This document shows, piece by piece, positions 6,325 through 64,000 of a DNA stretch of 64,000 nucleotides. Made by a program: the position numbers and the translations under genes. The notes under the pieces are model-generated. The model was not told where the DNA came from and searched no databases. It saw only the letters and a program-made list of their open reading frames with translations. Source of the stretch: Verrucomicrobiota bacterium (lineage in GTDB: Bacteria; Verrucomicrobiota; Verrucomicrobiia; Opitutales; Opitutaceae); NCBI GenBank assembly GCA_016222805.1, contig JACRQG010000041.1, positions 124,001 through 188,000 on the forward strand, given 5' to 3'. The stretch's first letter is position 1. Each line of letters begins with the position of its first letter.

Positions 6325-6371
6325 GACAGAAGCGATCGCGGTACTCCCTCCCCGGGCGCGCCGCGATGGAA

Positions 6372-43775: not shown

Positions 43776-46700
43776 ATGACCGGCCGGCCCTGTCGCACCT
43801 TTTTGGCGTCGTTCTCCCGCGCACCGTCGCGAGCGACGGCGCTGCTTGCCCTCACCTGCATCTCCCTGCCGGCGCTCCGTGCCGCCACGCCCCCGGACTA
43901 CATCGGCGACGTGCAGCCGATCCTCGCCGAGCACTGTTTCCACTGCCACGGCCCCGACGATCAGGATCGCAAAGGCGGTCTCCGCCTCGACGTTCGAGAG
44001 CCGGCACTGAAGGGCGGGAAGTCCGGGGTCGCCGCGATCGTGCCGGGCCAACCGGACGCCAGCGAAATCATCGCGCGCCTCGTCTCCCCACACGAAGACG
44101 AAGTGATGCCACCGCCGAAGGAGCACAAACGCCCCACCGCGGCGCAAAAGGACATCCTGCGCCGGTGGGTCGCCGCCGGCGCGCCGTACGCGCAGCACTG
44201 GGCCTTCACACCGCCCGCCAAGCCCCCCCTGCCGCCGTCCCCATCCCCGACGCCGTCCCCGTCTTCCAAGTCTCCCCAGCCTTCCCCGTCTCTCTCGTCT
44301 TCCCAGTCTCCCCCGTCTCCCACGTCTTCCCCGTCTCCCAAGTCTTCCCAGTCTTCCCCGTCTTCCCCTTCCTCCGCCTCAAGACCGAACCCCATCGACG
44401 CCTTTGTCGCCGCCAAGCTGCGCGCCGCCGGACTCGCACCGGCCCCGGCAGCCGATCCCGCAACCCTGTGCCGCCGGCTGTACCTCGACCTCATCGGCCT
44501 GCCTCCGTCCCCCGCCGAGGTCGCCGCCTTTGTCGTGGCGGCCGCCGCCGATCTGCCGACCGCGGTCGACACCCTCGCACGACGCCTGATGGCCTCCGAG
44601 GCCTTTGGCGAACGCTGGGCGCGGGTGTGGCTCGACGCCGCCCGATACGCGGACAGCAACGGCTTCGAGAAGGACCTTCCGCGCGAGCAGTGGGCCTGGC
44701 GCGACTGGGTCATCCGCGCCTTCAACCGCGACCTCCCCTACGATCAATTTCTGGTCGAACAACTCGCCGGCGACCTGTTGCCTGGCGCCTCCCAGGATCA
44801 GATCGTCGCCACCGGGTTCCTCCGCAACGGCATGATCAACGAAGAGGGCGCCATCGTGCCCGAGCAGTTCCGGATCGAGGGCATGTTCGACCGCATGGAC
44901 TGCCTGGGGAAGGCGGTGCTGGGCCTCACCCTGCAGTGCGCCCAATGTCACTCGCACAAGTTCGACCCGATCACCCAGGAGGAGTACTTCGGCACCTTCG
45001 CCTTCCTCAACAACACCCACGAGGCGCAGTCCTGGGTGTTCACCGCGGAACAGCAGCAGCAGGCGGAGCAGGTGCGGGCGGATCTGCGCGCCATTGACGA
45101 GCGCGCGAAGAAGGCGCTCCCCCAGTGGGAGGAAAAGCTGGCCGCCTGGGCCGAGGAGCTGCGCCAGGCGCGCCTGCCGTGGACGCCGATCAAGGCCATC
45201 GAACTCGCCAGCACCAGCGGCCTCAACCACCCCGTTCAGCTCCCGGACGATTCCATCCTGACCCTGGGCCATCCGACGACGCGCGGCGACATCTTCATCG
45301 TCGCCACCCCGGAGCTCGCCGGGGCCACGGGCTTGCGCCTCGAGGCCCTGACTCATGGTGACCTCGAATTCGGCGGACCCGGGCGCAGCAAGTACGGTAC
45401 CTGGGCGCTTACCGAGCTCGAAGTCAGCACCCAGATTCCCGGCAGCGACCAATGGGAAAAAGTCGCCCTGTGCCGCCCGTCGGCCGACTACTCCGAGGCC
45501 ACCCGCGGACTCGAGGAGGAATGGAAGGCCGGTTTCGACAAGGAGCGCCGCCGCATCGTGGGACCGGTGGATTTCCTGATCGACGGCTCCAACGACACCG
45601 CCTGGCGGGCCGACCGTGGCCCGGGGCGGCGCAACACCGAATCCGTCGCGGTTGTCCAGTTCGCCGAGCCGCTCCAATTTCCCGCCGGCACCAAGCTCAA
45701 GGTCCTGCTGCGCATGCACCACAGCGGCGACGACAACGGGCGGCACAACACGGCGCTCGGGTGCTGCCGGCTCTCGCTCACCCGCGCCCCGGATCCCCGC
45801 GCGGCACCCGTCGATTATGCCGCCGTGCTCGCCCTGGAGGTACCGCGGGAGCAGCGGACACCGGCCCAGGAGGCGGTGATTTTCCGCGCCTGGCGGGCCA
45901 CGGTCCCCGAGGCGAAGAAGTTCCAGACCGAAACCGAGAACGCCTGGAAGAAGTACCCGGCCGCCGCAACCTCGGTGCTCCACCTCGCGGAGCGCCGCGG
46001 CCTCCAGGTGCGGCCGACCCGCTTCCTCGACCGCGGCGCCTGGGACAAGCCGAAGCACCTGGTTTCCCCGCACGTGCCCGCCGCCCTGAACCCCTGGCCG
46101 GAGGGTGCGCCCCGCGATCGGCTCGGCTTCGCCCGCTGGCTGACCGCCCCCGCCGCCCCGCTCACCGCGCGGGTGGCGGTGAACCGCGTCTGGCAAAACC
46201 TCTTTGGCGCCGGCCTGGTGGAGACTCCCGAGGACTTTGGCACCCGGGCCCCGGTCCCGGAGCACCGCGAGCTCCTCGACTGGCTCTCCGTCGACTTCAT
46301 GGAGAATTGCTGGAGCCACAAGCACCTGCTCCGGACCCTTGTGACCAGCCGCACCTACCAGCAGGATTCCCGCGTGACCCCGGCCCTGCTCGAACGGGAT
46401 CCCTCCAACCGCCTGCTCGCGCGCGGCCCCCGCTTCCGCCCGGACGCCGAGGTGGTGCGCGACACCGCCCTCTCGATCGCCGGGCTCCTGCATCCGAAGG
46501 TCGGCGGACCCAGCGTCTTCCCGCCCGTGCCGGAAAACGTCCTCGCCTACAATTACGTGCGTCCGACGTACTGGAATCCGCCGCAGGATGCCGAGCGGTA
46601 CCGCCGCTCGCTCTACCTTTTCCGCAAGCGTTCGATGCCGGATCCAATGCTCAGCACCTTCGACGCCCCCAATGGCGACTTCGCCTGCGCCCGGCGCGTC

Positions 46701-47062
46701 CGCTCCAACACTCCGCTGGCCGCGCTCACCAGCCTCAACGAGCCCGTCTTCGTGGAGGCGGCCCAGGCGCTGGCCCTGCGGATCTGGCGGGAGGGGGGGC
46801 CGACCGACGACGGCCGCATCGATTTCGCCTACCGGCTCTGCGTCGCCCGGCCGGCCCGCGCGGCGGAGGCCGCCGCCGTCCGCCGGCTCCTCGACGAAAA
46901 CCGCACGCGCCTTCGGAACGGCGAACTCAAGGCCGGCGAGATCGCTTTCTCCGCCCTGACAAAGCCGGCCGATCTGCCGGCCGACGCCTCGCCCGCCGAC
47001 CTCGCCGCCTGGGTCGTCGTGGCCCGGGTGCTCCTGAACCTCGACGAGACGTTGACGAAATC

Positions 47063-47066
<4 letters not shown>
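43776..47066 (+). CDS. Planctomycete-type cytochrome (PSCyt1-DUF1549-DUF1553) protein
   Basis: 1096 residues from ATG 43776, just ahead of a signal peptide; an ATG at 43743 is also in frame. Order: PSCyt1 haem domain with CFHCHG (about residue 60), a Ser/Pro-rich low-complexity linker (about 150-205), DUF1549/PSCyt2 (about 205-420), a concanavalin/discoidin-like middle (about 470-690) and DUF1553/PSD1 (about 760-1040). Such proteins are large exported cytochromes of PVC bacteria, always next to a DUF1501 gene, and are linked to polysaccharide or sulfated-substrate loci without a proven reaction. It overlaps the DUF1501 gene by ATGA. Confidence 0.95.
44232..44377 (+). repeat. Low-complexity minisatellite-like tract inside the PSD1 gene
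   Basis: About 145 bp of imperfect repeats built from ccccgtcttcccagtctc-like units of roughly 9-12 bp. It encodes only Ser, Pro and a few Lys, Gln and Thr, and stays in frame. It joins the haem domain to DUF1549. Base composition (C/T-rich coding strand) is unlike the flanking gene, as expected for slippage-driven growth. Confidence 0.8.
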
Positions 47067-48496
<1,430 letters not shown>

Positions 48497-48637: not shown

Positions 48638-49705
48638 ATGCACTCCGTGGCCCGTCCTGCCACCCTTCGCCGGCTCGGGCGCTGGCGTACCATCCTCGCG
48701 CTCGGCGCCGGTCTCGCCTCTCTCGCCTCCGCGGCCGAACGCCCGCGCCTGCTGGTGCTCACCGACATCGGCGGCGATCCCGATGACCAGCAGTCGCTCA
48801 TCCGGCTCCTGGTTTACGCCAACGAGTTTGAGATCGAAGGCTTGGTCGCGAGCGCCTCGGGCACGCCCGGGGAACTCAAGCAGGCGGTGACCCGCCCGGA
48901 CCTCATCCGGCAGGCCGTGGCGGCCTACGGACAGGTGCGCCCGAACCTGATCCACCACGCCTCCGGCTGGCCGGAAACCGCCGCCCTCCTCGAACGGGTC
49001 AAGAGTGGCAACCCGCAGCGCGGACGCCCACACATCGGCGAAGGCCACGACACCGAAGGCTCGAACTGGATCGTCTCCCGCGTCGACGCCGGCGCTCCGG
49101 ATCGCCCGCTCAACGTCACCATCTGGGGCGGCCAGACGGATCTGGCCCAGGCGCTCTGGCGCGTTCGCACTGCCCGCGGGGTCGCCGGACTCAAGGACTT
49201 CACCCAACGCCTGCGCGTTTTCGACATCAATGATCAGGACCGGATCGCCACCTGGATCCACGCAGAGTTTCCCGGCCTCTGGTACCTGCTCGCCCAGGCT
49301 CCCGCCGGACGCGACAAGCGGGAAGGCACCTACCGCGGTATGTACCTGACCGGCGACGAATCCCTGACGAGCCGCGCGTGGATCGAGGAACACGTGCGTT
49401 CCCGCGGCCCCCTCGGCGCCCTCTATCCCACGAAGACCTGGACCGCCCCCAACCCCCACGGCTGCCTCAAGGAAGGCGACACTCCCTCGTGGTTCTTCTT
49501 CCTGCCGCAGGGCGGCAACGATCCCGCGGACCCGGCGAAGCCCGGCTGGGGCGGCCGCTACCGGCACGCGGACGACGGGTGGTTCCGGGACTTCCCCGCG
49601 GAACCCGGCCAGGATCCCCGCCACGGTGTCAGCCGCTGGCGTCCGAACTACCAGGCCGACTTCGCCCGCCGAATGGCCTGGTGTGTCGGGCAGCCGAGTC
49701 CCTGA
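48638..49705 (+). CDS. Exported DUF1593 nucleoside-hydrolase-like protein
   Basis: 355 residues with a signal peptide (ILALGAGLASLASAA). The Asp cluster LTDIGGDPDDQQSLIRLLVY (about 41-60) is that of the nucleoside hydrolase fold, which DUF1593 shares. NVTIWGGQTDLAQALWRVR and GYRHADD-like C-terminal segments fit the family. In PVC genomes it appears with sugar-active enzymes, and a glycoside or nucleoside N-glycosyl hydrolase activity is likely but unproven. It lies 141 nt after the DUF1501 gene on the same strand. Confidence 0.88.
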   Translation: MHSVARPATLRRLGRWRTILALGAGLASLASAAERPRLLVLTDIGGDPDDQQSLIRLLVYANEFEIEGLVASASGTPGELKQAVTRPDLIRQAVAAYGQVRPNLIHHASGWPETAALLERVKSGNPQRGRPHIGEGHDTEGSNWIVSRVDAGAPDRPLNVTIWGGQTDLAQALWRVRTARGVAGLKDFTQRLRVFDINDQDRIATWIHAEFPGLWYLLAQAPAGRDKREGTYRGMYLTGDESLTSRAWIEEHVRSRGPLGALYPTKTWTAPNPHGCLKEGDTPSWFFFLPQGGNDPADPAKPGWGGRYRHADDGWFRDFPAEPGQDPRHGVSRWRPNYQADFARRMAWCVGQPSP

Positions 49706-50910: not shown

Positions 50911-53043
50911 TCACGCCGCCTGCAGCAAGGTACCCGGGTCGCGGATCAACGCGATGCTGCCGTCGCCCAGGATCGCCCCGCCGGCCACGCCAGGGAGGTT
51001 CTGCAGGAAGGCGCCGAGGTTCTTGATCACCACCTCCTGCTTGCTGACCATCTCGTCGACCAACAGCGCGGAAATCCGGCCGGAGTGTTCCACGATGACC
51101 ACGATGCCCTCCCACGGCTGGTTGGCCTGGGCGGAGATGCCGAACCGCCGGTGGAGACGGTGCAGCGGGAGCAGGCGGCCACGGATGTCGATGACCTCGC
51201 CGTCACCGTGCACGGTGGAGATGTTTTCCCGGGTCGGCCGCAGCGCCATCTGCACGGAGGTGCTCGGGAGGATGAAGCGGTCCGCCCCCACGCGCACGAC
51301 CAGCCCGTCGATGATCGCCATCGTGAGCGGCAGCTTGATCTTGAAGGTCGAACCCTGGCCGATCTCCGACGCGATCTCGATCGTGCCCCGCAACTTCTCG
51401 ATGTTGCGCTTCACGACGTCCATGCCCACGCCGCGGCCCGAGACCGCCGTGACCTTCTCCGCGGTGGAGAAGCCCGGCAGGAAGAGCAGTCCGAAGATTT
51501 CCTCGCGCGAAAGCGTGGCGTTCTCCGGCACCAGGTTCTGCCGACGAGCCTTGGCGAGGATCTTGTCGGGGTCGATGCCCCGCCCGTCGTCGCGCAGTTC
51601 AATCACGATGTTGCTGCCCTGGTGGTAGGCCGTCAGGTGCAGCGTGCCCGTCTCCGCCTTGCCCCGAGCCGCACGATCGGCGGGGGCCTCGAGCCCATGG
51701 TCGAGCGCGTTGCGCACCATGTGCACGAGGGGATCGCCGATCTCCTCGACCACCGTGCGGTCGAGTTCGGTGTCCTCGCCGCTGGTCACGAAATTGACCT
51801 TCTTGCCGAAGTCGCGCGCGAGGTCGCGCGCCAGCCGCTCCATCTTCTGGAACGTGGGCTTGATCGGGATCATCCGCAGCGACATCGCGGTATGCTGCAG
51901 TTCCTTGGTGATGCGGGAGAGTTGCGAGACGTTGCGCTGCAGCAGCGAATTGGCCTCGGTGGAGGAACGGGAGCTCTCGATCAGCTGGCTCTGCACGATC
52001 ACGAGTTCACCGACGACGTCCATCAGCGAGTCGAGCTTCTCCGTGTTCACCCGCACGGTCTGGTTGCCGCTGGCGACCTTGGGCTTTCCGGTGTCGGCGG
52101 CGGGAGCCGCCAGCTCGGCCACCGCCTTCGGAGCCGGCGCGGCCGGCGCCACCGGAGCCGCTTCGGCCACGGCGACCGCCTCGGCCGCGGGGGCGGTGAC
52201 CGCAGCCGTCGGTTCCGGCTCCGACGGCACGGCCCGAATCGGATTGGGATTGGCGGCCAGCAGCCGCACGGCCCGGATCAGGTGCCCGACCGGAATGACC
52301 CGGTCCGGCAACTTGCCCTGCTCCACCGCCACCGCCACCTGCTGCGTGAGGGCGGACAGCGCGTCGCGACTCTTGAGAATCTCCGTGATGATGGCGGCGT
52401 TGAGGCGCAACTTGTGGTTGCGCGCCAGGTCGAGCAGCGACTCCACCTCGTGGGCCAGGGTGTGCATCGGCACGAGGCCGAGGAAGCCCGCGTTGCCCTT
52501 GATGGTGTGGAACGAGCGGAAGATCGAGTTGAGCGCCTCCGGGTTTTCCGGCTCGTGATCGAGGGCCAGCAACGCCGCCTCGATCTGCTGCAGGTGGTCG
52601 ATCGCCTCGCCGAGGAACTCCGTGAGCAGCTCGCGGTTTTCGTCGAGGTGCAGGTCGAGCAGGACATCCCCAGCCCCCGCCTTCTCCTCAACGGCCGCGA
52701 CGGTGGCCGCCGCCGGCGCGGCGACCTTCGGGAGCTCCACCGGGCGGCCGGCCTTGGCCGCCTCAAAGGCTCCGGGCAGCCACTCGACCAGCGTGCGGAG
52801 GGCGCCGAGCGTCTCGGCGTCGAAGGGATGGGCGCTGTCGAGCAGTTTCTCGAGGGAGGCGTGCATCGCCGAGACCGGGTCCCGCAGCTGGGACTCGAGG
52901 CTGAACTGCTCGCGCAGTTCGCCCAGGAGACTGTAGGCGGGCACCAAGCCCTCGTCCCGGCCGGGCTGAGCCAGCACACACTCGGTGGCGAGGCGGTTCA
53001 GGGTCTCTTCGATGGCGGTAAAGTGGTCGGAGGGAATGGGCAT
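50911..53043 (-). CDS. cheA: Chemotaxis-type histidine kinase CheA
   Basis: 710 residues from ATG 53043. An N-terminal extension of about 115 residues precedes the HPt (P1) domain, which carries H179 in SFHTIKGNAGFLG. An Ala/Pro-rich linker (about 275-330) takes the place of a clear P2 domain. Then come P3 dimerisation (VNTEKLDSLMDVVGELVIVQ), the P4 ATPase (EIGDPLVHMVRNALDHGLE, RDDGRGID, GRGVGMDVVK) and a P5 CheW-like domain. It should autophosphorylate in response to receptors and pass phosphate to a CheY. No CheY, CheR, CheB or receptor gene is visible here. It is divergent from cheW. Confidence 0.96.
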   Translation of the reverse strand: MPIPSDHFTAIEETLNRLATECVLAQPGRDEGLVPAYSLLGELREQFSLESQLRDPVSAMHASLEKLLDSAHPFDAETLGALRTLVEWLPGAFEAAKAGRPVELPKVAAPAAATVAAVEEKAGAGDVLLDLHLDENRELLTEFLGEAIDHLQQIEAALLALDHEPENPEALNSIFRSFHTIKGNAGFLGLVPMHTLAHEVESLLDLARNHKLRLNAAIITEILKSRDALSALTQQVAVAVEQGKLPDRVIPVGHLIRAVRLLAANPNPIRAVPSEPEPTAAVTAPAAEAVAVAEAAPVAPAAPAPKAVAELAAPAADTGKPKVASGNQTVRVNTEKLDSLMDVVGELVIVQSQLIESSRSSTEANSLLQRNVSQLSRITKELQHTAMSLRMIPIKPTFQKMERLARDLARDFGKKVNFVTSGEDTELDRTVVEEIGDPLVHMVRNALDHGLEAPADRAARGKAETGTLHLTAYHQGSNIVIELRDDGRGIDPDKILAKARRQNLVPENATLSREEIFGLLFLPGFSTAEKVTAVSGRGVGMDVVKRNIEKLRGTIEIASEIGQGSTFKIKLPLTMAIIDGLVVRVGADRFILPSTSVQMALRPTRENISTVHGDGEVIDIRGRLLPLHRLHRRFGISAQANQPWEGIVVIVEHSGRISALLVDEMVSKQEVVIKNLGAFLQNLPGVAGGAILGDGSIALIRDPGTLLQAA

Positions 53044-53174
53044 GCGAAGACGGCGGTTGCGCAAGCCCTGCAATCGACCCAACGGGGGCAAAGTTAACCT
53101 CATTTTTCACCTAAACTCCGCGCCCACCGGTGCCGAAATACCCTCAACCGGACCAAATCCCGAAACTCACCACC

Positions 53175-54059: not shown

Positions 54060-57000
54060 CTAGACTCCGAAGGCTCGCTCCGCTTCGCGGAGCAGCGACT
54101 CCGCGGTGAACGGCTTGTGCAGGAATCCGGCGACGCCTTCGGTCTTCAGCTTCTCCGCGTATTCGGGGGCGGCGTTCGCCCCGCTGCTCAGGACCACCCG
54201 AACCTCGGGGCGGAGGCGCCGCAGTTCACGGAACACCTCGAGCCCGTTCATCCGCGGCATCGAAAGGTCGAGGAGCACGCCCTGGATATCCGCCGCGCGT
54301 GCGGTGAACATCTCGATCGCCCCGGGGCCATCGCCGGCCTCCAGGGTCTCCCAGCCGTTGCGTTCGAGCATGGCCCGGCACACGCGGCGCACGACCACCT
54401 CGTCATCGACGACGAGAACCGTCCCTTTCTTCCGGGCGGGAGTCGCGGGAGCGGCTGCCAGGGTGACGGGGGTGGCTGGCGCCGCGGGCTCGACCACCGG
54501 GCCGGCGGGGAACAAAACGCGGATGCGGGTGCCCAGGCCGACCCGGCTGTAGACGAGAATGGCGCCCTTGTGGCCGCGCACGATGCCCAGGATGGCCGAC
54601 ATCCCCAGCCCGCGTCCCGTGAACTTCGTGGTGAAGAACGGCTCGAACAGGCGCTCCTGCGTCGCGGCGTCCATCCCGCAACCGGTGTCGGTCACCTCGA
54701 GGACAACATAGCGGCCGGGTTCCGGAATTTCGTCGCACCGGCTCTGCGCGAGCGTCTTGGCGTCGAAGTCCGCGACCGTCGTGCGCAAGTGGACCTGGCC
54801 GGCCCGATCCCCGATCGCCTCCGAAGCATTGGTGATCAGGTTCATCACCACCTGCTGCACCTGGCTCGAGTCCGCGATGATCCGCGGCAGCTGCGGGTCC
54901 GTCTCGATCCGAAGGGTGACCAGCTTGGGGATGGTCGCCCGGAACAGGTGGGCGTTCTCCGCGACGAGCGCCGCCAGGTCGATCTCCCGCACCTCGAAGG
55001 CCCCGCGCCCGGAATAGGCCAGCATCTGGCGCGTGAGCTCCGTGGCCCGTCGGGCCGCCCGGACGCTCTGATCGATGCTCCCCCGCGCCGGGCTGTCTTC
55101 CGGCAGGTCCATCAGCGCGAGATCCAGGTTGCCGAGGATTCCCATCAGGAGGTTGTTGAAATCGTGGGCGATGCCGCCGGCCAGTACGCCGAGACTCTCG
55201 AGCTTCTGGGCGTGCAGCAGCCTCCGCTCCAGTTCCAGTCGCGACTGCTCGCTGCGTTTGCGCTCCGTGAGATCGCGGACAAAGGCGCAGTGGAACTCCT
55301 GCCCCTCGAAGCGCATGAAGTTGATCGCCACCTCGACCGGGAAGGTCCGCCCGTCCTTGGCCCGGTGCAGGGTTTCGATCGAGTAGGCGCCGCGCTCGCG
55401 CGACTTCGCCCAGTGGTCCGCCCACTTTTCCCGCGGGAAGTTCGGATCGATGTCCGACACGGTCAGCTGGCAGAGTTCCTCGCGGGTGTAGCCGAGGGAT
55501 CGGCAGGCGGCTTCGTTGGCGTAGGTGTGCCTCCCCGCCTGGTCGATCCAGAACACCGGATCGCGCGCCAGGTCCACGGAGGTCTGCATGCGCCGCAGGA
55601 GATCCTCGGCACGCCGCCGCTCGGTGACGTCGCGCGTCACCGCCAGCACGCCGGTCGCGCGGCCCTCGGCATCGGTCAACGCGGCCGCCGCGATCTCTCC
55701 CACGAAGGTTGAGCCATCCGCACGCCGGAGGCGGTATTCGTGCAGTTCCACTTCGCCGCTGGTCTGCAGGCGCATGAAATTCTCCAACGCCCGGCCGTGA
55801 TCCACGGGATCGATAAACTCGAGCATGGATCGGCCGACCGCGGCTTCGAGGCTGTCCACCCCGTAGATTTCGAGCGCCTTGGGCGAGGCGTATTGGAGGC
55901 GGCCGTCCGGCTGCACCACCGACACCCCATCCGGAAACGTCTGCACGGCGGCCCGATACAGGCCCTCCGCCTCCCGCCGCGCGAGTTCCGCGCGCTCGTG
56001 TTGCCGGTGTTCCCGCAACGCGACGATGCCGAAGGCGAGGTTGTCCGCGAGCTTCTGCAGCAGGCAGGTCTCCTCGACATCAAAGGACTGCGGTTCCCCG
56101 GAATGCACCGAGATCGCCCCCATCGCCCGGCCTTCATGCACCAGAGGAGTGGCGCACACCGCCCGGGTCCCCCGCTGCGCCGCCGCCGCCCGCCACGCGG
56201 TGAAGCCCGCCTCCTGGGCGATGTCATGCACCACATGCACCCGACCGGTGCGCACCGCGAGACCCACGGGGCCGCGGCCGAAATCCGAGTCGCCCCACGA
56301 CACCCGCAGATTCGCCAGGTAGTCGGAATCCACCTTGGCCCACGCGACCGGCCGCACCGTGCGGTCCGCATCGTCCTCCGCCATCCCCACCCAGGCCATG
56401 CGATAGCCGCCGGTCTCGACGATCAGGCGGCAGACCGTCTGGAGCAGCCGCGTCTCGTCATGTTCGCGGATGAGCGCCTCGTTGCACTCCCCCAGCATGC
56501 GCAGCTGCCGGTTCGCGATCCGCACGCGTTCCTCCGTCCGCTTGCGATCGGTGATATCCTGGATCGTGCCGATCATGCGGCAGGGCTGGCCGGTCGCGTC
56601 GAACTCCAGCACCCCGCTCCCATCGACCCAGCGCAACTCGCCGTCGCTTCGCCGCACGATGCGGTACTCCCGGTCGAACCGGTTGCGTCCGGCCACGACG
56701 TGCTCCAGCAGATAGCTCCGCATCGCCTCCCGCTCCTCGGGTGGGACCAGTTCCAGCCAGCCCGACACGGTCTTGGGGTGGTCGGGCGGGATCCCGAAAA
56801 TCTCCTCCAGTTCCCGGGTGCAGATCCACGTGCCCGCCTGGATGTCCATCTTGTAGGAGCCGATGTGACCGACCGCCTGGGAGCGATGCAGGAAGTACTC
56901 GCTCTCGCGCAGGGCCGTCTCGGCGCGCTTCCGTTCCGTGACGTCGATGACGAACCCATGGGTCGCCACCGGCCGCCCATCGCGATCGCGCACGACCGTG

Positions 57001-57839
57001 GCCATGAGTTGCACCGGGAAGGAGGAACCGTCCGCACGCAGCGCATCGAGCTCGCCCACGAAGGCTCCCGAGGTCGCCAGCGCCGTCATCACCGGGCCGG
57101 AATTCCGCGCATCCTTCCAGAATTCGGTAATGTGGCGGCCGACCACCTCGCCGGCCGTCGCAAATCTCCACATGCGCAGAATGGCCGGATTCACGTAGAT
57201 GACCCGCCCGTCGACGTCGGCCGTCGCAATTCCCCAAAGCGTCGATTCCACCGCCCAGTCCTTGACCCGCAGCGTCTCCTGCTCCCGCGAGCGGATGTCC
57301 TGCTGGCCGATGGCGACCGCCAGCAGCGACGCCACCCGCAGTTCATCGTCGTTCGGTTCCCGATCCCGCCGGTGGCCGATGAGCAGCACTCCGCGCGGTG
57401 CGCCGCCATGGATCACGGCACAGCCGACACACGTCTCCCATCCGAACCCCTGGACCAGCGGATCCTCCCGGTGGAGCGCGTCCGCACGGAGCTGCCGGAA
57501 AACCCGGGGCGCCACCGATCCTTCCTCAAGCACCGCGCGGCCAATCCCGGTCCGTCCCCACTCCCCGATCGGCGCCCCTTCCGGCAACCCCCACTGCGCC
57601 GCCACGCGCAGGCTTCGCCCTGGGGTCGCGAAGCTCAGGTAGACCACGCCCTCCGCCTCCAGCAACTCGCCGCTCACCGCGGCCAGGTTGCCGATGTTGC
57701 GGGTCGCGTCGTCAGTCAGGTTGAGCAGTTCCTCGGTAACGCGGCCGAGAAAGCGCTCGATTCGGCGCTGGCGCCAGGGACGACCGCCCGGCTGGCCGCC
57801 GCTGCCTGGGACTCCTGCGTTCGGCTCGGGTGCGTTCAT
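54060..57839 (-). CDS. Large PAS/GAF hybrid histidine kinase with receiver domain
   Basis: 1259 residues, no membrane helix, so cytoplasmic. Estimated order: GAF (about 30-190), PAS (200-310), PAS (315-435), GAF (460-620), PAS (625-745), PAS (750-865), HisKA with [17 protein letters not shown] (His about 891), HATPase with NLITNASEAIGD and DTGCGMDAATQERLFEPFFT, then a receiver domain (1137-1255, LLDLSMPRMNGLEV). The HDFNN kinase type often acts in phosphorelays. It starts 10 nt after the stop of the preceding hybrid kinase gene, so it is the last gene of the TonB receptor/YfiR run. Signals are unknown; the GAF and PAS pockets could bind small molecules. Confidence 0.94.
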   Translation of the reverse strand: MNAPEPNAGVPGSGGQPGGRPWRQRRIERFLGRVTEELLNLTDDATRNIGNLAAVSGELLEAEGVVYLSFATPGRSLRVAAQWGLPEGAPIGEWGRTGIGRAVLEEGSVAPRVFRQLRADALHREDPLVQGFGWETCVGCAVIHGGAPRGVLLIGHRRDREPNDDELRVASLLAVAIGQQDIRSREQETLRVKDWAVESTLWGIATADVDGRVIYVNPAILRMWRFATAGEVVGRHITEFWKDARNSGPVMTALATSGAFVGELDALRADGSSFPVQLMATVVRDRDGRPVATHGFVIDVTERKRAETALRESEYFLHRSQAVGHIGSYKMDIQAGTWICTRELEEIFGIPPDHPKTVSGWLELVPPEEREAMRSYLLEHVVAGRNRFDREYRIVRRSDGELRWVDGSGVLEFDATGQPCRMIGTIQDITDRKRTEERVRIANRQLRMLGECNEALIREHDETRLLQTVCRLIVETGGYRMAWVGMAEDDADRTVRPVAWAKVDSDYLANLRVSWGDSDFGRGPVGLAVRTGRVHVVHDIAQEAGFTAWRAAAAQRGTRAVCATPLVHEGRAMGAISVHSGEPQSFDVEETCLLQKLADNLAFGIVALREHRQHERAELARREAEGLYRAAVQTFPDGVSVVQPDGRLQYASPKALEIYGVDSLEAAVGRSMLEFIDPVDHGRALENFMRLQTSGEVELHEYRLRRADGSTFVGEIAAAALTDAEGRATGVLAVTRDVTERRRAEDLLRRMQTSVDLARDPVFWIDQAGRHTYANEAACRSLGYTREELCQLTVSDIDPNFPREKWADHWAKSRERGAYSIETLHRAKDGRTFPVEVAINFMRFEGQEFHCAFVRDLTERKRSEQSRLELERRLLHAQKLESLGVLAGGIAHDFNNLLMGILGNLDLALMDLPEDSPARGSIDQSVRAARRATELTRQMLAYSGRGAFEVREIDLAALVAENAHLFRATIPKLVTLRIETDPQLPRIIADSSQVQQVVMNLITNASEAIGDRAGQVHLRTTVADFDAKTLAQSRCDEIPEPGRYVVLEVTDTGCGMDAATQERLFEPFFTTKFTGRGLGMSAILGIVRGHKGAILVYSRVGLGTRIRVLFPAGPVVEPAAPATPVTLAAAPATPARKKGTVLVVDDEVVVRRVCRAMLERNGWETLEAGDGPGAIEMFTARAADIQGVLLDLSMPRMNGLEVFRELRRLRPEVRVVLSSGANAAPEYAEKLKTEGVAGFLHKPFTAESLLREAERAFGV

Positions 57840-57849
57840 CGCCGGTGCC

Positions 57850-59940
57850 TCACGAGGCGGCGGCCGCCGCGTCGAGGGTGTTGCGGATCGCGGCCAGGAG
57901 AGAATCCGGACGATAGGGCTTGAGGAGCACGGACGCGCCGGGGATCGGAGGCGTGGTCCCCTGCTGCAGCAGTTCCGCGCTGTAGCCCGTCGAGAGTATC
58001 ACCTTCAGGTCCGGCTGGCGCGACTGCAGTTCGCGGGCAAGATCGATGCCACTCATGCCCTTCGGCATCACCATGTCGGTCAGGAGCAGGTCGAAGGCCC
58101 CCCCTCCCTTTTCCCACGCGGCGAGCGCGTCCGGCCCGTCCTGCGCGAGCACCGCCTGATAGCCGTAGCGGGGGAAGAGGACGGCGAGCATGTTGCGCAC
58201 GACGTCGTCGTCCTCGGCGATGAGAATCCGCTCGGTGCCGCGGTGGCGATCCGAGGCCGGCTGACCCGCCCCGGCCGTCCCCGTGGCCTCCAGGACGGTT
58301 CCCACCGGTGCGGCCGGCAGGAAGATCTCGAACAGGGCCCCCGCGCCCGGCGAACTCGTCAGCTCCACCCAGCCCTTGTGCTGGCTGACGATGGTCCGGA
58401 CGGTGGAGAGGCCGAGCCCGGTGCCCTTGCCCGAACCCTTGGTCGTGAAGAGCGGCTCGAACACCTGTTGTTGGATCTCCAGGGGAATCCCGCAGCCATT
58501 GTCGGCCACCGCGAGGACGAGGAACTGACCGGGACGGGCCTCGGGATGGCGCGCGGTCTGCGACGCCAGGACCACCGTCTGCCGCAGGGCCAGCCGGATC
58601 TCGCCGCCGTTCGGCATCGCATCGCGGGCGTTGACCACGAGGTTGAGGACCACGTGCTCCAGGTTGTTCTCGTCGCCCAGGATCATCGGCAGGCCGGAAT
58701 CCCATTCGGAGACGAGCTCGATGTCCTCCCCGATCAAGCGACGGAGCATCGGCAGGATGCGATCGAGCACCTCCGCCAGCTGGAGCGGCGCGAGTTCGCT
58801 GAACTGCTTCCGGCTGAAAATCAGCAGCTGCCGCGTGAGCGCCGCCGCACGGCGGCCGGCGGCCTGCACTTCCTGCAGGTCATCATGCAGCCGGGTGCCC
58901 GGCTGGCACTCGTGCAGCGCCTCCTCGGTGTAGATGTTGATCGCGGTGAGCAGGTTGTTGAAATCGTGCGCGATGCCCGCCGCGAGGTGCCCGACCGATT
59001 CCATCTTCTGGGACTGCACGAGCTGCTGTTCGAGTTCCAGCCGGTCGGTGATGTCGTCGATCAACCAGAGGGAACAGGCATCGTTGTCGATCGCGATCGG
59101 CTCGGTCGAGACGAGGACGTCGCGCAGCCGGCCGTCCCGGGTCCGCAGCTTGGCGGGATGTTTGCGCAGGCGATCGCCCCGCGACACGCCATCGAGCCAG
59201 GCCTTGCCCTCCGGCCAGAGCTCGAGTTCGCCCGGCATGTGGCCGATCACGTCTCCCATCGACTGCCCGGTGAGCTCGAGGAAGGCCGGATTCACCGAGA
59301 GGAAGCAGTGGTTGTAGTTGTACTGGATGGTCGAGGCGATCGGGCTGGCGGCAAAGGCCGAGGTGAACCGCGCCTCTGCCGTGCGGAGTTCGTCCGTGCG
59401 GCGCTCGACCTCCGAGGCCAGGTCCCACATTCGCGCGGCCAGCTTGCGGGCGAGCTGCCACTTGCGGGTGAGGGCATGCGCGAGCTGGAGCACCTCGATG
59501 TTGTCGAACGGCTTCTTCAGGATGATGAGGTTGTCGGAGGACCCGAGCTGGCGGATGGTCTCCGACCAGGAGTAGTCGGTGTACGCGGTGCAAATCACGA
59601 CCTGGAGCGCCGGGTCGACCTGCCAGAGGCGGCGGATGGTCTCGATCCCGTCCCACCCTGGGGGCATCCGCATGTCGACGAAGGCGAGCGAATAGGGTTC
59701 CCCGGCCTGGTGGGCGCGCTCGAGCAGGGCGAGGCCTTCCTGGCCCTGCAACGCCGAGTCGAGGACGAACGAGTCGGCCACCGGCGCGGAGCGGGTGTCG
59801 GCGAAGAGCGCCGCCTCGGCCGCGTCCAGCGACGCGTCATTGCCCCGGGAGATCAGGATCTTCCGGAAGTCGTCGTGAATCGACGGGGTGTCGTCGATGA
59901 CGAGGATACGGACGGGCGCGGAGGGTTGGGACGGGTTCAT
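57850..59940 (-). CDS. Hybrid kinase REC-PAS-HisKA-HATPase-REC
   Basis: 696 residues, soluble. The first receiver domain (about 10-140) starts [18 protein letters not shown] and has its Asp in [18 protein letters not shown] domain (about 190-305) follows, then HisKA with [17 protein letters not shown] (His about 322) and HATPase with [26 protein letters not shown] and [14 protein letters not shown] second receiver lies at about 575-690 ([16 protein letters not shown]). It can both receive phosphate from an upstream kinase and signal onward. Its ATG overlaps the stop of the broken membrane kinase gene by 4 nt. Confidence 0.95.
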
Positions 59941-61528
59941 GGAGAAAGAGGCAGCGGGAGGACGGGTAGTTCCAAAGTGAAGGTGGCGCCGCGGCCGGCT
60001 CCGTCGCTGGCGACGTTGAGCGTGCCGCCGAGAGTCTTGGCCGCGATGGCTCCGCTGTGGAGCCCAAAGCCATGGCCATCGCGCCGCAGATCTTCGTCAG
60101 GTGCTCCGGCGGGATTCCCACCCCGGTGTCCCGCACCACGAACCGCACCCGGCCTTCCTCCGCCGCCGCCAGTTGCAGGCTCAGCCGCCGCTCCGGGTTG
60201 TCCCCCGCCTTGATCGCCGTCACCGCGTTGCTCAGCAGGTTCACCAGAATCTGGATCACCCGGTGCCGATCCACCGTCATCGGCGGCAGCGCCGCATAGT
60301 CCCGCTCGATCCGGATCCGGTGCCGCCGGCACGAATCCTCCTTGATCCGCACCGCCTCGTCGAACACCTCCGCCGGGTTCACGTTCTCCAGCACCCCTCC
60401 CGGCTTCGCGTAGCTCTGCTGCATCGCCACGATCTCCTTGATGTGATCGACGTGCCGGCACACCCCCTCGATCTCCCCGCGCACCGCTGCATTCTCCTCC
60501 ACCAGGTGCTGCGTCACCTGCTCCAGGAAGCCCAGCACCTGCCGCCCCTGCGGATCCTTCCCCACGTACTCCGCCAGATCCCCCTCGTGCGCCCGCAGCA
60601 GCCCCACCGTCCGCTGCAGACTCCCCACCCGCGCCCGATCCAGCCGCTCCCGCAGCAGGTTCGTCGCCACATTCACGCTGTTCAGCACGTTCCCCACGTT
60701 GTGCAGCACCCCCGTCGCCACCTCCGCCATCCCCGCTTCCCGCGAGGCCGTCACCAGGGCACCCTGCAGCCGGAGGCGTTCCGTCATTTCGGAAGAGAGG
60801 CGGGCATGGGCCTCCGACAGTTCGCGGTTGGCGGTCTCCACCTGGCGCAGCATCGTGTTGAACGCCCGCGAGAGCTGCCCGACCTCGTCCCGCCCCGTCT
60901 CCGGGGCCCGCACCGAGTAGTCGCCCTCGACGGCGATCCGATCCGCCGTCCGGGCCAGATCCCGGAGCGGGCGCGCCACGATGTTGCGCAACACCGCGGC
61001 GCTCAGCACGGCCAGCACGAAAGTTCCCGGCAGGATGAGCGCGAGGAGGATTAGTTGCGGGCGCAGCACCTCCTGGCGAATCAACGCGTAGTCCACATCG
61101 AGCAGCAGGGTCCCGCGCACCGCCTCTTCCACCCGGACGGGTTCGGTGACGAGCAGGCGGCCGGCAACGATCACGATCGGTTCGGTTTCGCGGCGGACCT
61201 CCTCCTCCCGGGCTTCCGGGTCGCGATCGTGTCGGGCGAAGATGCTCCCGTCCGGCCGGAACAGCACCGCGCGTACGACCCGCGGCTCGAACCGCAGCGT
61301 CGCCAGCAACTCTTCGGCCGTGCGACGATCGTCGAACACGACGGCCGCCGCGGTGTTGGCCGCCAGCATCCGGGCCCGCACCGTGAAATCGGCCACCACG
61401 CGCTTCCGGGTCCACCACACCGTGGACCCGCCAATCGCCAGCCCGGCCACCAGCACGGTCAGGGCGCAGGCGCCGGCGATGAGCACGCCGACCTTCTGGC
61501 CGATGGTGAGGTTGCGGAAGGTGGTCAT
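59937..61528 (-). pseudogene. CHASE8-like/HAMP membrane histidine kinase, frameshifted near the 3' end
   Basis: The frame from ATG 61528 gives TM1 (about 12-34), a YfiN-like CHASE8 periplasmic domain (about 40-150, [20 protein letters not shown]), TM2, HAMP (about 180-235) and a transmitter with [16 protein letters not shown] (His about 277), N-box [13 protein letters not shown] and G1 [15 protein letters not shown]. At 60087/60088 the family sequence breaks off. The expected FAHGFTT segment is missing, and the C-terminal part ([12 protein letters not shown], then [11 protein letters not shown]) continues in another frame to 59937. The length is consistent with a 19-nt deletion. As read, the product has about 480 native residues plus 83 foreign ones, ending at 59837. 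Codon use also changes at this point. It overlaps yfiR-like and hybrid kinase genes by 4 nt each. Confidence 0.9.
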
Positions 61529-62094
61529 GGCTGGCGCGCGGGGGCGGACTCGTTCTTTCGGGCGAGCTGCAGCAACCGGGAGCTCACCCGCAGCCCCGAG
61601 TCCGCGAGGGCGGTCCGGTTGACTTCGAACCGAATGGCCGAGCCTTCCAGGAACAGGTTGATCATGCCGCCGAGCGCGCAGAACGTGTCCGCCTCGCCCA
61701 CCGTCAGGATGGGCAGCCCGGCGACCTGCCGCACCAGCGCCGCGGTCTCGGCACCGCTTTCGCGCGACACAAAGAGGACCTGGCAACTCCGCGGGTCCTC
61801 GTTCTCCGTGAGGGCGTGCACCAGGATCCTCCGGCCGCGCACGGTCTCCCCGGCCACCATCGCCTGCAGCGGCTCGAACACCGGGCTCGGCCCGGCCACC
61901 CCGATGACGAGGGCACCCGTGCCGCCGGTCGCCGGCCACTCGACGAAACGCGCGAAGTTCAGGAGAAACGCGGCCTTGACCTCGTGCTCCCCTCGCGCCG
62001 TCGCCCCGCTCCCCGGCGCCGGCGCGGCCGCGCCCAACAGGCACACCACGCCGGCCAAGCCGGCGAGGCAGAGGAGCGGGAGACGGAGTTTCAC
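61525..62094 (-). CDS. YfiR family periplasmic protein
   Basis: 189 residues, GTG start at 62094, with a signal peptide. The YfiR/DUF4154 pattern is clear: [20 protein letters not shown] (about 36-55), then [14 protein letters not shown], then [20 protein letters not shown] and [20 protein letters not shown], ending LLQLAR. In Pseudomonas YfiR is a periplasmic repressor of the CHASE8/HAMP cyclase YfiN. Here the partner encoded with a 4-nt overlap is a CHASE8-like/HAMP kinase. Cys residues that control YfiR by redox may be those near 105 and 133, though I have not checked their pairing. Confidence 0.92.
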
Positions 62095-62179
62095 CGGGAA
62101 GGAGAGGTTTAGGGCGCCGACCGCAGAGGGGACAGGAAGGCGGCCATCGAGAGCGCAGGCGCGCTTGAGCGGAGGGAGA

Positions 62180-62239
62180 GCGTGGAGCGTTCCACGCCCG
62201 CGCCGGTCTCACGCGGGGCGAGGTCGCCCCGCCCACAGG
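62180..62239. repeat. Hairpin plus palindromic intergenic repeat
   Basis: A 7-bp hairpin GCGTGGA/TCCACGC (62180-62197) is followed by a repeat unit, gcggggcgaggtcgccccgc (62213-62232, then ccacagg to 62239). The unit differs by one base in 27 from 19214-19240. Both sit in the gap between the TonB receptor and yfiR-like genes, where they could reduce read-through or protect the mRNA end. Confidence 0.7.
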
Positions 62240-62277
62240 TGGCCTGAGACAGTGTGAAGCAGCGCATTGTGGTAAAC

Positions 62278-64000
62278 CTAGAAGGTGAACGTGCTGCCCA
62301 CGACCAGATTGCGGCCCGGCTCATTCAGGCCCGAGCCGTGGATGCGGTAGTCGGCATCGGTCACGTTCTCGACTCCCAACGAGACCGAAACCCCTGGACG
62401 CGGCGTCCAGCCGGCCCGGACGGTTCCCACCGAGTACCCTGGCGTCCCTCCGGGCGGGATGCGTTCCCGATCCGCAAGATCTGCGGTCGACAGCCGGGCT
62501 TGGCGGCGGACAAGAGAGACGCCAGCCTCCGCCCACCACTTGCGGGAAGGCGAGCGCCACTCCAGGCCCACGCGAGTCGTATCCGGCATCAGCCGGGACA
62601 ACGGTTCCCGGCGCCGGTCGGCCGGATTGGCGGTGGGAAAGACGTCAATCTCACCGCGCTGGAGCGTCCAGGCGGCCCTGGCGCTGACACCCCGGCCCAG
62701 CACCCAGCGTCCCTCGGCCTCCGCCCCTTGCACGTAGCCATTCCCGGAATTGCGCTTGGTCAACTCCGCCAGCCGACCGAGAAAGCGCCCCGTCGGCACG
62801 CGGGTGATCATGCCGTCGATCTCGGTGTTGAACAGCGTCGCCGTCAGATCACCCCGGGCGCCATGCAGGCGGAGGCCGACCTCGGCCACGCGGTACTTTT
62901 CCGGGCGGACCTGGGTCGACGGAGTCTCCACCTGGCCGCTCGCCGCGGTGTCGAGCCGGGAAACATCGGACAGGTTCGGAGCCCGAAACCCATCGGAGAT
63001 CCCTCCGAAGGCCATCCAGCGCAAGCCCGAGGAAGTCGGACGCTGGTACGTCACCCGCACGCTCCCGAGCCACGAGTACCAGCGACCGTAGAACGAGGCC
63101 GGGACATTGGCCACCGGGTCGAGCAGCCGTCCGGCCCGGAGTTCGGCCGCATCGAATCGTCCCCGCACGGTCGCGTGCCAGCCTTGCCAATCGCGGAAGC
63201 GGTGCTGGAGGTAGACGCCAGAGAGGTCGTAGCGCGAATCATCCGCCACCGGTCCCTGCACCTCGAAACGGTCGAAGGCGCCGTCCGCCAGGTAACGCTC
63301 CGCCCGCGTGTCGACCCGGTCGCGGTGATAGCTCGCGCCGCCCAGCCAGGTGCCGGCACCGGTCGACCCCTGCAGCCGGGCGGTGAAGCCGTGAGTGACC
63401 ACGTCGGCGGCGCTCACGTCGCGACGGCCGTCGCTGCGGACGCGTTCCTGCGTTTCCTCCTGGCCGTGCCGCGAGAGCGTGAACTCCGCCTCCTCCACGA
63501 GCGCCTGGGGCCGGCGAAGTTGGAGCCGCCCATACGTCAGATCGCGGCGCTGGTCCGTGTCGCGCCGGCGTTCGGAGCCGGACGAAAGCCCGAGCCAGTC
63601 TGTGCCTTCCGGCGTGCTGTGCGACCGGTTCACGTCCTCCTGCGCGAATCCCTGGTGCGCGAGCACGAGCCGCCATCCCGCCGGCAGGCGCGACTCCCAG
63701 CGCAGGTCGAAGGCCGCCTCGTCGTAGTCGGTGCCACCCTGGCGGCCCACGTCTGCCCCACCCCGGAGTTCCCCGAACCAGCGCCGGGTCGCCCCGAGGC
63801 GCAGGGCCGAGTCGGCACCCACCGGGCCCGCGAACTCCCCGCGCGCCACGGCCGCCCGATCGGCGGTACCGGCCCGCGTCGTCACCGTCCGTTCCCAACC
63901 CGCCAGACGACTGTCGAGCAGGCTGCCCGACAGCGCGTGGATCGTGCCCCCCACCGAGTCGCTGCCGTAGAGAACCGAGGCCGGGCCCTTCACGACCTCG
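62278..64000 (-). CDS. TonB-dependent outer-membrane receptor (5' end beyond window)
   Basis: About 574 residues are present; the N-terminal signal, TonB box and start of the plug lie beyond the right edge. The visible part opens with the end of the plug (GPASVLYGSDSVGGTIHALS). A beta-barrel with many alternating strands follows, ending LNEPGRNLVVGSTFTF with a C-terminal Phe, the outer-membrane assembly signal. The barrel includes FGGISDGFRAPNLSDVSRLD and QRGEIDVFPTANPADRRREP, typical of TonB receptors. The substrate is not readable. It precedes the YfiR-like gene on the same strand. Confidence 0.93.
   Translation of the reverse strand, partial: EVVKGPASVLYGSDSVGGTIHALSGSLLDSRLAGWERTVTTRAGTADRAAVARGEFAGPVGADSALRLGATRRWFGELRGGADVGRQGGTDYDEAAFDLRWESRLPAGWRLVLAHQGFAQEDVNRSHSTPEGTDWLGLSSGSERRRDTDQRRDLTYGRLQLRRPQALVEEAEFTLSRHGQEETQERVRSDGRRDVSAADVVTHGFTARLQGSTGAGTWLGGASYHRDRVDTRAERYLADGAFDRFEVQGPVADDSRYDLSGVYLQHRFRDWQGWHATVRGRFDAAELRAGRLLDPVANVPASFYGRWYSWLGSVRVTYQRPTSSGLRWMAFGGISDGFRAPNLSDVSRLDTAASGQVETPSTQVRPEKYRVAEVGLRLHGARGDLTATLFNTEIDGMITRVPTGRFLGRLAELTKRNSGNGYVQGAEAEGRWVLGRGVSARAAWTLQRGEIDVFPTANPADRRREPLSRLMPDTTRVGLEWRSPSRKWWAEAGVSLVRRQARLSTADLADRERIPPGGTPGYSVGTVRAGWTPRPGVSVSLGVENVTDADYRIHGSGLNEPGRNLVVGSTFTF

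What the first reader, a model, noticed from the sequence alone, without database searches (positions are those of the whole stretch)
59937..64000. TonB receptor-YfiR-CHASE8 kinase module: YfiBNR-like logic with a histidine kinase as output
In YfiBNR an outer-membrane lipoprotein and periplasmic YfiR control a CHASE8/HAMP diguanylate cyclase. Here a TonB-dependent receptor, a YfiR protein and a CHASE8-like/HAMP protein are encoded in a row with a 4-nt overlap between the last two, but the output domain is an HNVGN-type histidine kinase. It feeds directly into a hybrid kinase with an N-terminal receiver, again with overlapping genes. This suggests a system that senses ligand uptake at the outer membrane through YfiR and outputs a phosphorelay. 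I know of no described pathway with this arrangement.
Basis: partly seen in the sequence, partly recalled or inferred. Interest (0 to 1): 0.75.

Follow-up and report, generated by a model that had tools for sequence, protein, structure and literature searches.

The report
TonB receptor–YfiR–CHASE8 kinase signalling module
The window carries a gene set that probably carries a signal from an outer-membrane receptor through the periplasmic protein YfiR to a membrane histidine kinase; it is a member of a widespread but experimentally untested relative of the c-di-GMP switch YfiBNR.

Summary
The genes are there. YfiR (61525-62094 -), a CHASE8-HAMP kinase (starts 61528 -, 4-nt overlap) and a hybrid kinase with receiver domains (57850-59940 -) follow a TonB receptor whose start lies outside the window. 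The kinase frame is broken at 60087/60088 in this assembly, probably a misjoin in a near-identical repeat.

The order is conserved. In 288 genomes of the window's phylum, 47 of 52 YfiR places are followed by CHASE8; 44 carry a histidine kinase, none GGDEF. In 299 Pseudomonadota genomes, 56 of 99 have a kinase and 15 GGDEF; there YfiB occurs only beside GGDEF (8 of 15), TonB beside the other 7. A TonB gene ends just upstream of 35 of 49 YfiR places in the phylum sample, against 2 of 49 other kinase frames and 37 of 6786 random points. The kinase keeps the exact AAVVF YfiR-binding motif.

It is not unknown: Malone 2012 reported kinase outputs on YfiN-like proteins, NCBIfam has models for the triad, and V. 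cholerae VpvABC is a described analogue with a cyclase.

Best reading: YfiR gates a CHASE8 kinase in response to a TonB receptor. Ligand, direction of control and partner regulator are unknown. New member of a known, functionally untested kind.

The parts
62278..64000 (-). TonB-dependent receptor, 729 aa in full; its start lies outside the window (window-equivalent 64467; L008:3279-5468 -)
   Evidence: PF00593 103.6 bits, PF07715 75.2 bits; N-terminal segment KLLELEELMQVKVVTAT resembles that of many YfiR-linked receptors; best NCBIfam model TonB-hemin TIGR01785, 148 bits, below its cut-off of 316.85
61525..62094 (-). YfiR-like periplasmic protein, 189 aa
   Evidence: PF13689 152.4 bits; NCBIfam NF053591 140.1 bits, over cut-off 125; PDB YfiR E 4.2e-15; AF2 model pLDDT 84.7, best PDB matches are YfiR
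59937..61528 (-). CHASE8-HAMP-histidine kinase (HNVGN type); frame broken at 60087/60088 in this assembly
   Evidence: PF17152 56 bits, HAMP 59 bits, HATPase_c 37.5 bits with the profile matched only to 59 of 111; AF2 model of residues 1-234 pLDDT 93.9, Cache/PAS-like fold between two long helices
61334..61348 (-). AAVVF motif (kinase residues 61-65), the YfiR-binding motif proposed for P. aeruginosa YfiN 66-70
   Evidence: alignment with PaYfiN; motif role from PMC3375315 (passages)
60087..60088 (-). break of the kinase reading frame, exactly where another copy of this sequence reaches the contig end
57850..59940 (-). hybrid kinase REC-PAS-HisKA-HATPase-REC, 696 aa, 4-nt overlap with the kinase gene
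   Evidence: Pfam, coordinates, N-terminal receiver in the local domain map
54060..57839 (-). PAS/GAF hybrid kinase with C-terminal receiver, same strand, next gene; possible further part of the operon
   Evidence: Pfam; membership in the module is inference from position only

Best explanation
This is a member of a widespread TonB receptor-YfiR-CHASE8 kinase module. Shown by sequence: a TonB-dependent receptor, a YfiR-family periplasmic protein and an inner-membrane CHASE8-HAMP histidine kinase are encoded together, and this order recurs in many phyla. Inferred: YfiR binds the CHASE8 domain through the AAVVF patch and its own hydrophobic C-terminal face and sets the kinase state, as it does for the cyclase YfiN. 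The outer-membrane receptor takes the place of YfiB as the signal source, most likely by bringing a ligand into the periplasm that YfiR (one lobe of a binding-protein-like fold) senses. The kinase then passes phosphate to the receiver at the start of the next, overlapping gene.
For: Gene order and a second copy in the same genome. Survey: 47 of 52 YfiR places in 288 genomes followed by CHASE8, 44 with HATPase in the same frame, 0 GGDEF; Pseudomonadota 56 kinase and 15 GGDEF of 99. TonB gene ending within 1.5 kb upstream of YfiR: 35 of 49 (phylum sample), 54 of 69 (genome contigs set), 50 of 91 (Pseudomonadota); controls from the first two sets: 2 of 49 other HATPase frames and 37 of 6786 random points. 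AAVVF kept in the window; Phe70 equivalent in 156 of 159 kinase partners and 18 of 18 cyclase partners; YfiR Phe162 equivalent is F in 117 of 159 and in the window. YfiB beside GGDEF only, and none of the 15 Pseudomonadota GGDEF loci has both TonB and YfiB. Kinases without their own receiver are followed by a receiver more often, 37 of 56 against 26 of 87, Fisher p 3e-5, loci not independent. Fold matches. YfiR domain fused directly to kinases in L069, L073, L318.
Against: No experiment exists here. Kinase modules with no same-strand TonB gene in the span examined: 11 of 44 (phylum sample; 2 of these have one on the other strand), 11 of 59 (genome contigs set; 5 likewise, 3 with under 2.5 kb upstream) and 12 of 56 (Pseudomonadota; 1 likewise, 3 with under 2.5 kb upstream). 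The window receptor is divergent: 262.6 bits against my profile, where eight other receptors near YfiR in the same list score 532 to 752, and far below the NCBIfam TOL_0244 cut-off (55 against 645). The window kinase is below the NF053592 cut-off (151 against 194). The window kinase frame is broken. Direction of control (repress or activate) and the phosphoacceptor are not shown.
Confidence: 0.62

Rival explanations
1. Direct sequestration: the TonB receptor itself binds YfiR (for example through the short helix before its TonB box), as YfiB does, and ligand occupancy releases or captures YfiR. No import is needed.
For: In Pseudomonadota TonB and YfiB exclude each other beside YfiR, as two alternatives for one job would. 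Many receptors near YfiR share an LSLEELM-x-x-EVTSVSK-like N-terminus: regex match in 117 of 173 TonB frames within 5 kb of YfiR, and in a second set 8 of 9 near YfiR against 3 of 41 not near. In PaYfiR the YfiB-binding face includes residues implicated in YfiN binding (PMC4655355, passage).
Against: The motif also occurs in receptors far from YfiR (L341, and L347 by eye); the regex was tuned by eye on linked receptors and two of its three matches in the unlinked set (L365, L366) look spurious; I sorted the second set into near and far by hand. No structure of a complex.
Confidence: 0.25
2. Transporter-regulator neighbourhood: the kinase senses something in the periplasm through YfiR and only controls expression of the adjacent receptor; the receptor is output, not sensor.
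For: TonB receptors are commonly controlled by neighbouring regulators (general knowledge, recalled). Some kinase modules lack a nearby TonB gene.
Against: TonB genes sit in the same position beside cyclase-output YfiR too (7 of 15 in Pseudomonadota), where no phosphorelay to a promoter is implied. In VpvABC the outer-membrane and periplasmic genes contribute to c-di-GMP and rugosity (PMC12456836, introduction passage).
Confidence: 0.2
3. The window copy is a dead or degenerate kinase: the frame break is real and this copy no longer signals.
For: Frame break with loss of the region that reads FGHGFTTK in the paralogue; a G-F-T-T box of this kind is present in 14 of 19 frames with an HN[VIL]GN motif in the survey regions.
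Against: The break lies at the exact base where another copy reaches the contig end (149 of 151 bases identical from 60087 on), a third piece of the same core ends contig C35 (225 of 228 identical), and the frame resumes intact to the end: the pattern of a misjoined repeat.
Confidence: 0.15
4. Redox or envelope-stress sensing by YfiR cysteines, as described for HmsC and YfiR, with the TonB receptor incidental.
For: Cysteine-based control is reported for HmsC (PMC8846402, passage) and YfiR (PMC4655355, passage).
Against: At PaYfiR positions 71, 110, 145, 152 the window has G, C, C, N, so neither pair is kept. In kinase-linked YfiR, C145 is kept in 13 of 159; C71 in 50 and C110 in 115 of 159, so some other members could still form the first pair.
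Confidence: 0.05

Closest known systems
YfiBNR / TpbB of Pseudomonas aeruginosa and E. coli YfiR-DgcN-YfiB
   Same: YfiR family protein, CHASE8(PAS)-HAMP inner-membrane partner, AAVVF motif and YfiR Phe162 equivalent, adjacent overlapping genes
   Different: Histidine kinase instead of GGDEF; TonB receptor instead of the YfiB lipoprotein; disulfide pairs of PaYfiR not kept
NCBIfam triad NF053590/NF053591/NF053592 (TOL_0244 family TonB receptor, TOL_0243 family YfiR-like protein, YfiR-associated sensor kinase)
   Same: Same three kinds of gene; window YfiR is over the NF053591 cut-off (140.1 against 125)
   Different: Window kinase below the NF053592 cut-off (151 against 194) and receptor far below NF053590 (55 against 645); receptor nearer the heme type
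YfiN homologues with kinase, Hpt, GGDEF-EAL or MCP outputs (Malone et al. 2012, PMC3375315; section 12 and passages read)
   Same: YfiR-YfiN[PAS] core with sensor histidine kinase output; Opitutus terrae is among the distant homologues aligned
   Different: The main text does not mention TonB (0 occurrences); its supplementary table was not seen
VpvABC of Vibrio cholerae (PMC12456836, passages and section 14; PMC8754643, passages)
   Same: Outer-membrane protein, periplasmic protein and membrane-bound output protein in one operon; the authors suggest vpvAB is a sensing unit that became linked to the cyclase later
   Different: Diguanylate cyclase output; described as porin and periplasmic binding protein; I could not compare VpvA or VpvB sequences here
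TOL_0244 of Thalassolituus oleivorans and OmpS of Alcanivorax dieselolei (PMC6304351, passages)
   Same: TOL_0244 names the TonB family of the NCBIfam triad; that paper cites OmpS, 40.3% similar, as essential for alkane detection (the original OmpS paper is not held)
   Different: The alkane link concerns those receptors; the window receptor is not in that family
FecA-FecR-FecI type TonB signalling (recalled)
   Same: Outer-membrane TonB receptor signals inward
   Different: Uses a receptor signalling domain, an anti-sigma factor and a sigma factor; Pfam found only plug and barrel in the window receptor

Membership tests
YfiBNR | YfiR family periplasmic protein | tested here: met
   PF13689 152.4 bits; best fold matches are YfiR entries such as 4zhu and 4yn7
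YfiBNR | canonical YfiR by NCBIfam NF053586 (sequest_YfiR) | tested here: not met
   62.5 bits against a cut-off of 85
YfiBNR | CHASE8/PAS periplasmic domain and HAMP in the membrane partner | tested here: met
   PF17152 56 bits, HAMP 59 bits; model
YfiBNR | AAVVF YfiR-binding motif | tested here: met
   identical AAVVF in the window kinase
YfiBNR | GGDEF output | tested here: not met
   HATPase_c in its place; no GGDEF in the Pfam scan
YfiBNR | YfiB (OmpA-like lipoprotein) in the operon | tested here: not met
   no YfiB domain within 4.2 kb downstream of YfiR in any kinase locus of the phylum sample, the window's included; the rest of the genome was not searched for YfiB
YfiBNR | Cys71-Cys110 and Cys145-Cys152 pairs of YfiR | tested here: not met
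   window has G, C, C, N at these columns
NCBIfam TOL_0244/TOL_0243/YfiR-associated kinase triad | YfiR-like protein over the NF053591 cut-off | tested here: met
   140.1 against 125 bits
NCBIfam TOL_0244/TOL_0243/YfiR-associated kinase triad | kinase N-terminal region over the NF053592 cut-off | tested here: not met
   151.3 against 194 bits, although the match spans 4-222 of 223 positions
NCBIfam TOL_0244/TOL_0243/YfiR-associated kinase triad | TonB receptor over the NF053590 cut-off | tested here: not met
   55 against 645 bits
VpvABC | outer-membrane protein-periplasmic protein-diguanylate cyclase operon | tested here: not met
   output is a kinase
VpvABC | homology to VpvA and VpvB | not tested
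   no named Vibrio chromosome was reached; the relation rests on the papers' wording
Kinase controlled by YfiR | change of kinase activity with YfiR | not testable with these tools
   needs biochemistry

The most novel reading that the evidence does not exclude
TonB receptors signal across the envelope through YfiR to CHASE8 histidine kinases. This would be a second, general route of TonB-linked transmembrane signalling beside FecA-FecR, seen here in records of 13 named phyla. It would be the prevailing use of YfiR, with the textbook YfiBNR a derived branch in which a lipoprotein replaced the receptor and GGDEF the kinase.
Probability: 0.45. Interest if true: 0.75.

Novelty: new member of a known kind. 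Interest (0 to 1): 0.5.

Why it matters
YfiR is known from pathogens as the repressor of a biofilm cyclase. In the two phylum samples taken here that is the minority arrangement, and most YfiR proteins sit beside a CHASE8 histidine kinase, usually with a TonB receptor. If the receptor is the sensor, this gives a testable route by which bacteria read what arrives at the outer membrane, in organisms with very many TonB receptors (at least 150 plug matches in this genome alone).

Tried and rejected
Chance neighbourhood: rejected by the survey and the two controls.

Reading the periplasmic domain as something other than CHASE8: rejected.

Ligand from riboswitches: no Rfam match over gathering score in the window, and only an RNase P and a tRNA in the nine module loci given. 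Nothing learned.

Ligand from the receptor: PDB sequence matches lie mostly in the plug and mix heme, siderophore and B12 receptors; the best NCBIfam model is TonB-hemin, under its cut-off. A heme-like ligand is a guess only.

N-terminal helix of the receptors as a YfiR-specific mark: partly rejected, since receptors far from YfiR can carry it.

Claim that kinase output is ancestral: not settled. The combined YfiR+CHASE8 tree (177 modules plus P. aeruginosa and E. coli, quick method, no mixture model) needs 9 changes of output, at least 4 forced by well supported branches, and one change between TonB and YfiB among the 144 rows with either. It is unrooted, and the tool warned of long branches, the YfiB group included.

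Limits: my domain profiles were built from a few seeds, the window among them, and iterated on the same loci. Places with broken frames or short contigs were left as other: in Pseudomonadota 27 of 99, of which 7 are YfiR-like proteins, all under 45 bits in my profile, with a kinase further on and 1 (L304) has HAMP-GGDEF without recognised CHASE8. 16 of 159 kinase modules were dropped from the receiver count for lack of room. Several of the 13 phyla rest on a single locus, mostly from metagenome-assembled genomes.
Full report
What is there. The window is bases 124001-188000 of contig C16 of a 7.9 Mb, 51-contig genome. The phylum is Verrucomicrobiota by inference: contigs of its phylum-mates equal in length named records (G166:C11, 191796 bases, and JAJPGZ010000007.1, Spartobacteria; G126:C27, 104078 bases, and JAJFLP010000122.1, Verrucomicrobia). 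On the minus strand lie a TonB receptor (62278 to beyond the window, 729 aa), YfiR (61525-62094), a CHASE8-HAMP kinase (from 61528) and a hybrid kinase with receivers (57850-59940), with 4-nt overlaps at the last two junctions.

The kinase frame. The kinase frame is not continuous. It stops making sense at 60087/60088 and resumes in another frame up to the end. The other end of contig C16 carries the same sequence from exactly base 60087 on (149 of 151 bases), and the end of contig C35 carries the start of the kinase core (225 of 228 bases, window 60518-60745) in a HAMP-GAF protein. So at least one more kinase with a near-identical core exists and the assembler broke there. I read the frame break as a probable misjoin, and the order C35 end to C16 end as a probable neighbourhood: a HAMP-GAF kinase whose stop overlaps the TonB start (by eye), then TonB, YfiR, CHASE8 kinase, hybrid kinase. 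Neither is proven.

A second module. Contig C35 holds TonB (L009 1654-3765), YfiR (3767-4357), a CHASE8-HAMP-PAS-HNVGN kinase (4354-6327) and a large PAS hybrid kinase, in the same order. These are the two YfiR places found in the genome (genome 95.6% complete).

Conservation in the phylum. In 288 genomes of the phylum, PF13689 has 52 places in 34 genomes and PF17152 60 places in 38. 47 of 52 YfiR and 47 of 60 CHASE8 lie within 1.5 kb of each other. I fetched the surroundings of all 52. 44 partners have HATPase in the same frame, 3 have CHASE8 without a recognised output in that frame, 2 YfiR are fused to kinases (L069, L073), 3 have no CHASE8 next or a contig end, and none has GGDEF.

Conservation elsewhere. 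In 299 Pseudomonadota genomes there are 99 places in 70 genomes. All 99 were fetched: 56 kinase, 15 GGDEF, 1 fusion, 27 other, truncated or none. The genome-contig scan gave 80 loci (the best of 512) with 82 YfiR places: 59 kinase, 3 GGDEF, 20 other or truncated. Kinase modules with a TonB gene fall in 13 named phyla by record titles, several on one locus only. Two Sphingobium plasmids show the same triad as annotated genes. A start codon in exact 4-nt overlap with the YfiR stop is available in 55 of 159 kinase partners over the three sets, and one within 30 nt in most of the others.

Outer-membrane partner. A TonB gene ends within 1.5 kb upstream of YfiR in 35 of 49, 54 of 69 and 50 of 91 places with at least 2.5 kb upstream (phylum sample, genome contigs set, Pseudomonadota). 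Controls: 2 of 49 other HATPase frames and 37 of 6786 random points in the first two sets. In Pseudomonadota 32 of 56 kinase modules have TonB upstream and a further 12 downstream only. YfiB occurs in 8 of 15 GGDEF loci and 0 of 56 kinase loci there; the other 7 GGDEF loci have TonB. On a tree of YfiR plus CHASE8 one change separates TonB from YfiB systems, while output type changes at least 4 times. The tree is unrooted and has long branches.

How it probably works. The window CHASE8 domain keeps AAVVF, the proposed YfiR-binding motif of PaYfiN. The phenylalanine is kept in 156 of 159 kinase partners and all 18 cyclase partners; the YfiR Phe162 equivalent is F in 117 of 159 and in the window (roles from passages of PMC3375315). 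This is good evidence for the same YfiR-CHASE8 contact. The YfiR model matches solved YfiR (TM by target 0.74-0.81) and, more weakly, substrate-binding proteins, an L-Trp binder among them. Hence a ligand-sensing YfiR fed by a TonB receptor is the mechanism I find most likely, with direct sequestration by the receptor as the main rival. The PaYfiR cysteine pairs are not kept in the window, which speaks against the redox model. Kinases without their own receiver are followed by a receiver gene more often (37 of 56 against 26 of 87), which fits transfer to the next gene product, as the window arrangement suggests; these loci are related, so the p-value is only a guide.

What is known. Searches of open-access full text for YfiR with TonB, DUF4154 (45, 86) and CHASE8 (46) listed no paper that, from its title and the start of its abstract, is on this triad; I read none of the five YfiR+TonB papers, and subscription papers and preprints are not held. 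Malone 2012 (PMC3375315; section 12 and passages read) already reports kinase outputs. NCBIfam already models the triad, and in the phylum sample 29 of 52 YfiR places exceed the NF053591 cut-off. VpvABC is the nearest described whole system (PMC12456836, passages and section 14). TOL_0244 rises sevenfold on n-C28 against Tween 80 and is likened to the alkane sensor OmpS (PMC6304351, passages). So the arrangement is catalogued but, as far as these searches reach, untested.

Verdict.

Noticed in passing
window 60087-60088; L008:5465-5615; L010:4872-5099: Near-identical kinase core in at least two genes (225 of 228 and 149 of 151 bases); contigs C16 and C35 both end inside it, and the window kinase frame breaks at the same base.
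   Followed up: partly
L010:619-3480: Three tandem genes that by eye look like PhnD-type periplasmic binding proteins, ahead of the HAMP-GAF kinase at the end of contig C35; not run through Pfam.
   Followed up: no
L069:1-2043 -, L073:9002-11749 +, L318:2776-5418 -: YfiR domain, long coiled-looking stretch, apparent membrane helix and histidine kinase (hybrid in L073 and L318; L069 runs off the contig end) in one protein, without CHASE8: YfiR used as a direct kinase sensor.
   Followed up: partly
L239, L245, L248, L255 (genome G397): One Pseudomonadota genome with seven YfiR places; four have a TonB gene beside them but no recognised CHASE8 partner next door.
   Followed up: no
window 50911-53103 -: CheA-like protein (Hpt, H-kinase_dim, HATPase, CheW) on the same strand, downstream of the module.
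   Followed up: no
window 45452-48496 + and 48638-49705 +: DUF1501 protein and a cellulose-binding Sde182/nucleoside-hydrolase-like protein.
   Followed up: no
genome G000: At least 150 TonB plug matches (150 of 247 candidates were scored), a very large receptor set.
   Followed up: no
L119, L156, L271, L312: Variant order YfiR-TonB-CHASE8 protein (kinase in three, output not seen in L312), with the receptor gene between the other two.
   Followed up: no
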